A DNA stretch of 64,000 nt from Pseudomonas corrugata (GTDB taxonomy: Bacteria; Pseudomonadota; Gammaproteobacteria; Pseudomonadales; Pseudomonadaceae). Numbering within the stretch: the first letter of the stretch is position 1; every line of letters starts with the position of its first letter. The translations under genes were made by a program, and so were the position numbers. The stretch is from NCBI RefSeq assembly GCF_001269905.1, contig NZ_LHVK01000006.1, forward strand, positions 186,001-250,000. Reading direction: 5' to 3'. Below are positions 15,728-44,000 of this stretch, piece by piece. Below the pieces are notes generated by a model. The model was not told where the DNA came from, ran no database searches, and saw only the letters and a list, made by a program, of their open reading frames with translations.

Positions 15728-16005
15728 ATGGTGTGCGAGCCTGCTCGCGATGACGGCGGAACCTTCAACACAGGAGCAAGCAGATCCACCGCTATCGCGA
15801 GCAGGCTCGCTCCCACAATGGGCCAAGGTGCCAGCAGGATTTGAGTCCCACCGCAGGTTCTCTGTGGGAGCGAGCCTGCTCGCGATGACGGCGACACATT
15901 CAACACTGGAGCGGGCAGACCCACCGCTATCGCGAGCAGGCTCGCTCCCACAATGGGCCAAGGTGCCAGCAGGATTTGAGTCCCACCGCAGGTTCTCTGT
16001 GGGAG
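15728..16005. repeat. Tandem REPIN array (two full units plus start of a third)
   Basis: Forward REP copies (TGTGGGAGCGAGCCTGCTCG type) begin at 15728 (degenerate) and 15863, and inverted copies at 15794-15817 and 15929-15952. Units repeat with an exact 135-base period, including the spacer that begins GGGCCAAGGTGCCAGCAGG. The third unit starts at 15998 and is broken at 16005 by the insertion element; it resumes at 17183 with its inverted REP at 17240-17263. Confidence 0.9.
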
Positions 16006-16028
16006 ATTCTATGGTGCAGGGCTAGCCC

Positions 16029-16976
16029 CTAAATGCCTTTTGGTAGGTATTCGCTCTGGTTCTTCAACAGAGCGAATGCCACTCGCGCAAGCTTGCGGGC
16101 CAGTGCTACCAGTGCTTGGGTTGTGCTAAATCCTCGAGCCCTTAGGGCCTCATAAAATCCCTTCCACGCCGCGGTGCGGCTCGCCGACATCGCGGCGTTG
16201 TGCATCAAGCGACGCGCCTCTGGATCACCTCGTTTAGACAAGCAACGGCGCCCCTTCTTTTTCCCTGAGTCCGCGATGCGCAAGTCCAAGCCCAGAAAAG
16301 CGATGAAAGCATCGGCATTCCTGAAGTCCCCACGCTGAAACGATGCGATTAAACGGGCACCACTCAACAAGCCGATGCCTTCGACTTTCATGCAACGCTT
16401 GAGCTGATGACCCAAACCGGCTTGTTCCAACTGCGTCTGAATGGTTTTCTCGAGCAGGGTTTCCAGTCTTTGCATAGCGTTTATCTGGCTTTTGAAAGCC
16501 GCTTCGAGCAACGGCTCGTTCGCCCAGCTTTGCTTGAGGCTGACACGCGCCTGAACCAGAGCTGCGCGGCGCCGGAAAAGGCTTATAAGTCGGCAATAAA
16601 GGGGTGATGGCGGGACCCAAGGGTGCAACAGATGGCCCTCGTTGTTTAAATAACGAGCCAACAACCGAGCATCTAAGGCATCTGTTTTAGCGCGCACTTT
16701 CACGCCCTTGCGGTAATGACTGAGCTCGTAACCGTCGATTATGTAGATCACACAGCCTTGCGCATAGGCCAGATCGGCGAATTCCTGGTGATAGGTATTG
16801 GTCGCTTCAATGGCAACATCCACTGGCGCGGGCAACGCCTTGAGCCATTTCTTGATCGCAGCTTTGGTGTTGGGGATTGTTTCGAGCCGGTCAGATTCGG
16901 CGTGATAAATCACCAACTCATCCTTGGCGACATCGACACCTACGATTGGCTGGGTGATGGCGATGGGCATTGCCAT
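16029..16976 (-). CDS. IS110-family transposase (DEDD/serine recombinase)
   Basis: 315-aa recombinase with the two IS110 domains. The N-terminal RuvC-like DEDD site is intact: Asp15 (GVDVAK), Glu57 (AIEATN), Asp99 and Asp102 (KTDALDA). A central helical segment (about 130-185) precedes the C-terminal Tnp_20 domain with GIGLLSGARL and Ser247 in CLSKRGDPEARR, the position of the nucleophilic serine. GGAGG lies 7 bases before ATG 16976. No frameshift or stop interrupts it, so the element could be active. It is the only gene of the element; its 200-base upstream region holds the guide RNA candidate. Confidence 0.95.
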   Translation of the reverse strand: MAMPIAITQPIVGVDVAKDELVIYHAESDRLETIPNTKAAIKKWLKALPAPVDVAIEATNTYHQEFADLAYAQGCVIYIIDGYELSHYRKGVKVRAKTDALDARLLARYLNNEGHLLHPWVPPSPLYCRLISLFRRRAALVQARVSLKQSWANEPLLEAAFKSQINAMQRLETLLEKTIQTQLEQAGLGHQLKRCMKVEGIGLLSGARLIASFQRGDFRNADAFIAFLGLDLRIADSGKKKGRRCLSKRGDPEARRLMHNAAMSASRTAAWKGFYEALRARGFSTTQALVALARKLARVAFALLKNQSEYLPKGI

Positions 16977-17004
16977 TGAAAATCCTCCGGGCTAAGGTTT
17001 GAAC

Positions 17005-17169
17005 ACTTGAAGGGTTCACCCAGAGGCGCAGGCTTGTTCCTATCGTCGGTCTAGGCCAGATGCATTCTTTATCGGCGCTTGGGTGAAAGGAGGAGGGGCG
17101 AAATCTCCCACGGTCTGTACTGCTGCTAACAGTCAGAATCGAGCCTTGTCCCTCCTCCTCCCTTCAAGT
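17005..17169 (-). ncRNA. Candidate IS110 bridge RNA
   Basis: Read on the minus strand, a 9-bp perfect inverted repeat (17161-17169 with 17005-17013) encloses two stem-loops. The first is closed by GGAGGAGGG/CCCTCCTCC (17150-17160 with 17090-17099). It displays AGGCTCG (17146-17140) and GTGGGAG (17111-17105), which equal the left target strand and the complement of the right target around the CT core of the occupied REP. The second is closed by CACCC/GGGTG arms (17075-17085 with 17018-17031). It displays AGAAT (17068-17064) and ACAAG (17037-17033), matching the right and left ends of the element. This is the target-loop/donor-loop layout described for IS110 bridge RNAs. Exact ends and transcription are inferred. 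Confidence 0.8.
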
Positions 17170-17182
17170 CCTACCATACAAG

Positions 17183-17336
17183 CGAGCCTGCTCGCGATTG
17201 CGATGTGTCAACCAACATCAATGCTGCTGACCTGACGCCATCGCGAGCAGGCTCGCTCCCACAATTGATCGGGGACAGCCGGAAAAGACAAGTCGGCTGC
17301 CAGGTCGCCTCGCGAGCAAGCTTTGCTCCTACAAGT
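17183..17336. repeat. Remainder of the split REPIN and a variant REP
   Basis: CGAGCCTGCTCGCGAT at 17183-17198 completes the third array unit, and the inverted partner lies at 17240-17263. A diverged copy (CGCGAGCAAGCTTTGCTCCT) follows near 17311-17332. Confidence 0.85.
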
Positions 17337-43819: not shown

Positions 43820-44000
43820 ATCCGCAGCGTCCTAGGGGAGTAGTCTCCCGCGAGCACCCTGCTCGCCCGGCATACGTCAACATACTTGGTCAGCAGACCA
43901 TGGCGTATGCGGCCCAAGCGTCCGGAACCGGTCGCAGGGTTTGACAAGACCTATGACACGCACACCTTACCCGGGGCGGGGAGGCTGTACGTGTCATAGC
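43820..44000 (+). promoter_or_regulatory. yybP-ykoY (manganese) riboswitch
   Basis: The leader of the GDT1-family gene has the conserved yybP-ykoY elements: CCTAGGGGAGTAG at 43831-43843, GTCAACATACTTGG around 43877-43890, and a final helix CTATGACACG (43951-43960) with CGTGTCATAG (43990-43999) enclosing CACCTTACCCGGGGCGGGG. The class senses Mn2+ and controls Mn exporters such as MntP and the UPF0016/TMEM165 family, which is exactly the downstream gene. The ribosome site lies about 20 bases beyond the last helix, consistent with translational control. Confidence 0.88.

What the first reader, a model, noticed from the sequence alone, without database searches (positions are those of the whole stretch)
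17005..17180. IS110 guide RNA whose guides match the REP it sits in
The non-coding left end of the IS110 element folds, on the transposase strand, into two stem-loops inside a 9-bp closing stem. The first loop shows AGGCTCG and GTGGGAG. These are 7-base matches to the left and right halves of the very REP that is interrupted, meeting at the CT core. The second loop shows AGAAT and ACAAG, matching the element's own right and left ends next to the same CT. This is the layout expected of an RNA-guided (bridge RNA) recombinase, and it explains at base level how a Pseudomonas IS110 element picks REP sequences. Bridge RNAs are described for other IS110 members; I do not know of a description for this element.
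Basis: partly seen in the sequence, partly recalled or inferred. Interest (0 to 1): 0.88.

Follow-up and report, generated by a model that had tools for sequence, protein, structure and literature searches.

The report
REP-targeting bridge RNA of IS110 element
A small jumping DNA element in this Pseudomonas genome carries a predicted guide RNA that spells out the host repeat it sits in; this is a new example of the known bridge-RNA mechanism, and related elements show that when the guide differs, the chosen repeat tends to differ with it.

Summary
An IS110-group element (window 16006-17182, 1177 bp) lies in a REP. Its left-end RNA body, folded without flanks, forms two stem-loops inside a 9-bp closing stem. 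Loop 1 shows AGGCTCG and GTGGGAG, 7-nt matches to the interrupted REP; loop 2 shows AGAAT and ACAAG, matching the element's own ends.

Relatives turn this match into a test. Among 105 distinct insertions, own guide/flank pairs beat all 5000 shuffles. In genomes holding several REP variants, 69 of 87 testable insertions sit in the variant spelled exactly by their own guide, against 43.4 expected from variant abundance (0 of 200000 simulations; counts). In an 11-row set, mostly from outside Pseudomonas, guides on both sides go with their own flanks.

It is a new member of a known kind. Added here: natural guides follow REP variants, with fitted costs of about 4-fold per G-U pair and 8-fold per mismatch. 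Transcription and activity could not be tested.

The parts
16006..17182 (-). IS110-group insertion sequence, 1177 bp, including one copy of the CT/AG core
   Evidence: Flanks overlap by AG when joined; alignment across the junction in G010
16029..16976 (-). transposase/recombinase, 315 aa, DEDD + Transposase_20 domains; D15, E57, D99, D102, S237 invariant in 7 aligned relatives
   Evidence: Pfam, NCBIfam NF033542 'IS110 family RNA-guided transposase', nearest solved structures IS621 and ISCro4, alignment A2
16977..17180 (-). non-coding left end (204 nt) holding the predicted bridge RNA; RNA body about 16996-17170
   Evidence: Folds, 22-row alignment A1
17160..17168 (-). 5' arm of the 9-bp closing stem (CTTGAAGGG)
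   Evidence: partner 17006-17014
17006..17014 (-). 3' arm of the closing stem (CCCTTCAAG)
17140..17146 (-). [quoted passage not shown]
   Evidence: goes with the flank in relatives
17105..17111 (-). [quoted passage not shown]
   Evidence: goes with the flank across relatives
17103..17104 (-). target-loop handshake bases AT, complementary to the last two bases of the element's right end
   Evidence: Sequence; scheme from PMC11208158 (passages read)
17064..17068 (-). left donor guide AGAAT, matches the right end of the element
17033..17037 (-). right donor guide ACAAG, would pair with CTTGT at core plus left end
17183..17198 (.). left half of the interrupted REP (left target; CGAGCCTGCTCGCGAT on +)
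   Evidence: 861 copies of AGGCTCGCTCCCAC in this genome
15997..16005 (.). right half of the interrupted REP (CTGTGGGAG on +), including the AG core copy
16006..16028 (-). short right end (23 bp) with CATAGAAT

Best explanation
The element is an IS110-group insertion sequence whose left end encodes a bridge RNA. Shown here, from sequence alone: the RNA can form a target-binding loop and a donor-binding loop; the guides match the interrupted REP and the element's own ends around a shared CT core; in relatives the target guides go with the flanks on both sides; within a genome the guide, beyond variant abundance, predicts which REP variant is entered. Inferred from the published IS621 work: the element excises as a circle, the RNA is transcribed, the RNA-recombinase complex aligns circle and REP at CT, cuts the top strands with the composite DEDD/serine site, exchanges strands with help of the handshake bases, and integrates in the REP. 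The guide tolerates G-U pairs and single mismatches at a cost, which gives a possible path by which guides move from one REP variant to another.
For: Guide/flank match in the window: both 7-mers in order in 0 of 20000 shuffles. 105 distinct insertions: mean 6.18 of 7 own Watson-Crick matches against 5.24 permuted, maximum 5.51 in 5000; with guide register corrected 6.35 against 5.40, maximum 5.67, 64 of 105 exact; with 12 further copies read by eye 6.30 against 5.25, maximum 5.50, 67 of 117 exact. 69 of 87 insertions at the exact-guide REP variant, 43.4 expected, 0 of 200000 simulations (counts); e.g. G124, 6 of 7 in AAGCTCG although AGGCTCG is seven times commoner. Fitted cost 4.3-fold per G-U (95% 2.0-11.9) and 8.3-fold per mismatch (3.5-17.7); 0 of 300 guide reassignments fit as well. 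Eleven-row cross-family set: LT 67 of 77, RT 76 of 77, neither reached in 20000 permutations. Stem position A-U 28, U-A 13, C-G 7 of the 48 left ends parsed on both strands. Catalytic residues. Locus without the element. The distant Woeseiaceae copy sits in another dispersed repeat (15 exact copies of its 14-bp target) with other guides on both sides.
Against: No transcript or activity shown. The closing stem has no compensatory change and is absent from the minimum-energy fold when bases are added at both ends. 18 of 87 insertions sit in a variant that is not the exact guide match. Of 12 copies that the extraction pattern missed and that could be read by eye, 9 are not exact 7 of 7. Pairwise sign tests on the tree are too small to decide: position -6 about 3 same, 1 opposite, 3 no difference; position -3 about 4 / 0 / 1. 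One insertion, seen under two names (L037 = L063), has a non-REP left flank with an unchanged guide. L214 and L217 match their left flank poorly (5 and 4 of 7), and the 6 of 7 scored for L213 is out of register, 3 of 7 in register by my reading. L045 does not fit the stem rule by eye. No sigma-70-like promoter was found in the integrated element. The permutation tests are not corrected for kinship.
Confidence: 0.94

Rival explanations
1. The recombinase protein itself recognises the REP; the RNA loops resemble REP halves because the left end captured REP sequence or shares ancestry with it.
For: Nearly all Pseudomonas targets examined keep one side constant (right flank CCCAC in 93 of 96 with a right end found); the loop strings are REP-like.
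Against: The two guides match opposite strands and lie 28 nt apart in a loop; the guide predicts the chosen variant within one genome; guides on both sides go with unrelated flanks in other families while the donor parts stay alike.
Confidence: 0.03
2. The left end is an ordinary structured 5' leader or sRNA that regulates the transposase, as proposed for Asr9/Ssr9 of ISPpu9, and not a guide.
For: The structure lies directly upstream of the start codon; ISPpu9 sRNAs were reported to alter transposase expression (PMC8450116, passages read).
Against: A regulatory role does not predict agreement of loops with flanking host DNA.
Confidence: 0.02
3. Apparent guide-target agreement reflects shared ancestry: each genome has one REP variant and one inherited element.
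For: Guide equals the most abundant of five variants in 15 of 27 genomes (6.7 expected by shuffling), and sign tests on the tree lack power.
Against: The within-genome test allows for abundance, and at least 20 guide changes are needed on the transposase tree (quick method).
Confidence: 0.03

Closest known systems
ISPpu10 (Pseudomonas putida, IS110 group)
   Same: Pseudomonas IS110 element entering REPs between bases 9 and 10 with a 2-bp repeat (PMC1525189, passages read), the same position by my reading; guides predicted by Durrant et al. 2024 (legend of Extended Data Fig. 10 read)
   Different: I did not have the ISPpu10 sequence, so identity and guide sequence could not be compared
IS621 of E. 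coli
   Same: DEDD plus serine recombinase, bridge RNA in a long left end, CT core, REP target, short ATA/TAT donor repeats, handshake bases (PMC11208160, PMC11208158, parts read)
   Different: Protein only distantly similar (phmmer E 5.9e-23); other REP and other guides; right target guide matches 7 bases with the core here
ISPa11 and the seekRNA elements (IS1111 group)
   Same: REP target in Pseudomonas aeruginosa chosen by an RNA with two guide segments (PMC11187229, passages read)
   Different: There the RNA comes from downstream of tnp; here it is upstream in the left end
ISPpu9 of P. putida KT2440
   Same: IS110 element in REPs, AG core repeat, small RNAs detected from the element (PMC8450116, passages read)
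   Different: The RNAs were interpreted as regulators of tnp; relation to this element not tested

Membership tests
IS110 group, bridge-RNA recombinase | DEDD RuvC-like domain and Transposase_20 domain with catalytic serine | tested here: met
   residue numbers of IS621 from PMC11208158, placed with a chain offset of 2 by my reading
IS110 group, bridge-RNA recombinase | Long non-coding left end, short right end | tested here: met
   204 nt against 23 bp
IS110 group, bridge-RNA recombinase | RNA in the left end with two internal loops | tested here: met
   As a prediction; limited stem covariation
IS110 group, bridge-RNA recombinase | 5' side of target loop matches left target top strand, 3' side complements right target including core | tested here: met
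IS110 group, bridge-RNA recombinase | Donor loop matches the element's own ends | tested here: met
   AGAAT and ACAAG; ends and guides near-constant in relatives, so a match without covariation, and the extraction pattern itself nearly fixed the ends
IS110 group, bridge-RNA recombinase | Shared CT core and short ATA/TAT subterminal repeat | tested here: met
   CATAGAATCT and CTTGTATG; feature from the PMC11208160 legend
IS110 group, bridge-RNA recombinase | Transcribed RNA bound by the recombinase; recombination activity | not testable with these tools
   Needs RNA sequencing, binding and recombination assays
IS1111 group | RNA in a long right end | tested here: not met
   Right end only 23 bp; RNA in left end
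ISPpu10 as the same named element | High sequence identity to ISPpu10 | not testable with these tools
   ISPpu10 sequence not at hand; PMC1317595 is not held

The most novel reading that the evidence does not exclude
This IS110 lineage lives by reading its hosts' own dispersed hairpin repeats: its bridge-RNA guides have been rewritten many times to follow the repeat variant, or even the repeat family, of each host, and G-U pairing lets one guide serve two or three variants at once and so bridges the switch. It is a natural record of how an RNA-guided recombinase is retargeted.
Probability: 0.6. Interest if true: 0.58.

Novelty: new member of a known kind. Interest (0 to 1): 0.42.

Why it matters
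Bridge RNAs are being developed as programmable recombinases. These elements supply natural guide-target pairs in genomes that offer hundreds of REP copies in several variants, so mismatch and wobble tolerance in nature can be read from genomes and compared with laboratory screens. They also turn an old question, why certain Pseudomonas elements sit in REPs, into a base-level prediction that a guide swap can test.

Tried and rejected
Rfam gave no family for the RNA at gathering threshold and only weak, unrelated hits at E up to 5. Plasmid DNA search found no match; plasmid protein search gave 1074 records, all below 60% identity. A MAFFT-only alignment misplaced the target-loop stem in some rows, so RNAalifold support (29 pairs, 4 with compensatory change) is weak and the stem was recounted by anchored strings. 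Covariance-model building and structure prediction were not used. A fixed-offset guide definition fails for a class with one extra base (guide ending CGTCA); one search scored these out of register, allow for it. Of 203 loci held, 30 gave no element with the extraction pattern: fragments, contig ends, stumps, or variants. In 12 of these a left flank and guide could be read by eye: 3 exact (L072, L109, L110), 9 not (L076, L100, L103, L122, L123, L127, L128, L129, L138); adding them leaves the permutation result standing. None is in the 87-insertion test. The right guide of L109/L110 predicts a CTCTCAC flank, which was not found in the stretch held. For the cross-family table L210 was left out as a near-copy of L211. 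Independent-pair sign tests did not reach significance. Promoter scan of the integrated element: none.

Full report
Observation. On the minus strand the window holds a 315-aa transposase (16029-16976) with the DEDD_Tnp_IS110 and Transposase_20 domains. NCBIfam names it IS110 family RNA-guided transposase, and the only solved structures matched at E 0.001 are IS621 and ISCro4. Upstream lies a 204-nt non-coding left end; the right end is 23 bp. Joining the flanks gives an intact REP with a 2-bp AG overlap, so the element is 16006-17182. The joined sequence aligns at 84% over 913 positions to the matching locus of genome G010, which has a REP and no element there; the alignment reaches 81 bases past the junction, inside a REP array.

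Fold and guides. With bases added at both ends the closing stem is lost and the z-score is only -2.1. The guides AGGCTCG, GTGGGAG, AGAAT and ACAAG stand where stated; ACAAG also occurs a second time in the left end. Both target guides in order occur in 0 of 20000 dinucleotide shuffles. Bases AT after the right target guide complement the end of the element's right end, as expected for the handshake bases described in PMC11208158 (passages read); on the donor side the first handshake base C pairs with the last base G of the left target, the second does not pair (my reading).

Relatives. 45 named loci and 88 of 398 Pseudomonas genomes (which scored only two candidates a genome) hold related sequence. 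A pattern-based extraction gave 105 distinct insertions and 143 in 53 genome labels; at least two pairs of labels look like one genome under two names (L035/L065 and L037/L063), and 30 of 203 loci gave no element. Right flanks: CCCAC 93, CCTAC 2, TTATT 1, not found 9 of 105. Own guides match own left flanks at 6.18 of 7 positions on average, permuted 5.24, maximum 5.51 of 5000; with the register corrected and 12 further copies read by eye, 6.30 against 5.25, maximum 5.50, 67 of 117 exact. These permutations are not corrected for kinship.

The decisive test uses genomes with several REP variants. Five variants were counted in 39 genomes. The genomes used held 109 distinct insertions; 100 had a left flank among the five variants and 9 did not. 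Of the 87 whose guide also spells one of the five, 69 sit in the spelled variant; abundance alone predicts 43.4, and 200000 simulations never exceeded 59. Examples: G124 6 of 7 in AAGCTCG (106 copies) although AGGCTCG has 777; G039 6 of 6 in AAGCTCG (333) although AAGCCCG has 628; G295 5 of 6 in AAGCCAG (295) against AAGCCCG 394. Examples against: G366 0 of 2, G005 0 of 1, G100 1 of 3. A two-parameter fit on the 100 insertions (34 genomes) gives a 4.3-fold cost per G-U pair and 8.3-fold per mismatch, genome-bootstrap intervals 2.0-11.9 and 3.5-17.7; the two costs do not differ significantly (likelihood ratio 1.9). Reassigning guides among genomes never fitted as well in 300 trials. The window's guide AGGCTCG can form G-U pairs with AAGCTCG and AAGCCCG; elements with this guide in genomes poor in AGGCTCG sit in AAGCTCG (G204 2 of 2, G266 1 of 1, G289 3 of 3), and G289 also holds a copy whose guide reads AAGCTCG. 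In G094 guides TAGTTCG and GTAGGAG go with AAGTTCG-CT-CCTAC flanks, a sequence with 124 copies there and none in the 8 other genomes.

Guide changes are frequent: at least 20 on a transposase tree of 51 rows (quick method). Guide equals the most abundant of the five variants in 15 of 27 genomes, 6.7 expected by shuffling, 4 of 20000 as high; this number is not corrected for kinship, and tree-based sign tests were too small to decide.

Outside the genus, a profile search of 369 genomes of the class, at most six candidates scored in each, found 9 genomes at E 1e-70 or better, own genome included. There the right guide goes with the right flank: GTAGGAG with CTCCTAC, CGATGAG with CTCATCG, GAGCCGAG with CTCGGCTC; in L045 GAATAAAG with CTTTATTC. 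Two copies in one genome (G444) have left guides TTCCCTGG and TTCCTTGG, each identical to its own flank. In the 11-row table (window, L067, L045, and 8 of the 9 loci outside the genus) own matches, best sliding position, sum to 67 of 77 left and 76 of 77 right, neither reached in 20000 permutations. L214 and L217 match the left flank poorly (5 and 4), L217's flank matches other rows' loops better than its own, and the 6 of L213 is out of register. The Woeseiaceae copy L045 (45% protein identity) sits in GGTCCGCTTTATTC, present 15 times exactly in that genome; in the three places read in full (L220-L222) this lies in the loops of long hairpins. It is another dispersed repeat family than the Pseudomonas REP. 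That genome is a metagenome assembly and joins at repeats may be wrong.

Structure conservation. Of 49 distinct left ends, 48 could be parsed on both strands of the target-loop stem; the base before GGGA and its partner are A-T in 28, T-A in 13 and C-G in 7. L045 was not parsed and does not fit by eye. RNAalifold on 22 rows predicts 29 pairs, 4 with compensatory change, two of them U-A to C-G in the upper target stem; the closing stem shows none.

What is known. Durrant et al. 2024 (PMC11208160; sections 6, 8, 12, extended-data legends and passages read) describe the mechanism, report covariation over 5511 target-RNA pairs, show target motifs for 16 guides, and predict guides for ISPpu10 and ISPa11. 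PMC11187229 (passages read) shows an RNA guiding ISPa11, which targets REPs. Tobes and Pareja 2006 (PMC1525189; passages read) show ISPpu9 and ISPpu10 in REPs between bases 9 and 10. My paper searches (titles and starts of abstracts seen) listed nothing on guides following REP variants; the library lacks most subscription papers, so this is no proof of absence. The element is therefore filed as a new member of the IS110 bridge-RNA kind.

Not shown: transcription, RNA binding, recombination. No sigma-70-like promoter was found in the integrated element; in IS621 a promoter lies across the circle junction (PMC11208160, section 8), and TAGAAT in the right end would suit a -10 box there, which is inference.

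Noticed in passing
L220-L225 (G398, Woeseiaceae MAG): A dispersed repeat with a conserved core of about 30 nt (GGGATGGCTCCCTGCGGTCCGCTTTATTCCC); in L220-L222 it lies in the loop of long hairpins whose arms differ between copies yet are self-complementary. Several copies come in inverted pairs 132 bp apart. L224 and L225 show the IS110 right end joined to another point of this core (CT-GCGGTCCG).
   Followed up: partly
L197 (G000:C30 near 337803), L199 (G046), L198 (G182): Short left-end stumps: about 27-33 nt of the element's left end without the rest; in L197 and L199, whose sequence was read, a REP half precedes the stump. In the window's own genome the stump stands before a reading frame that looks like Dps (recalled, not searched).
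   Followed up: partly
L037, L063 (same insertion): Non-REP left flank: the first 14 bases of the right flank are repeated on the left of the element, with the guide unchanged; looks like a rearrangement.
   Followed up: no
L028: Element copy whose left end up to the target-loop hairpin and whose right end are replaced by REP DNA; rearrangement or assembly fault.
   Followed up: no
window 15740-16000: REPs in a direct repeat of about 135 bp just beside the element (self-matches).
   Followed up: no
window 43822-43942: yybP-ykoY manganese riboswitch (Rfam RF00080).
   Followed up: no
window 16029-16976: Sub-threshold match to NCBIfam TIGR_Tas_endo (33.5 bits against a cut-off of 100); one search lists a TIGR-Tas paper that mentions IS110 often (not read).
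   Followed up: no
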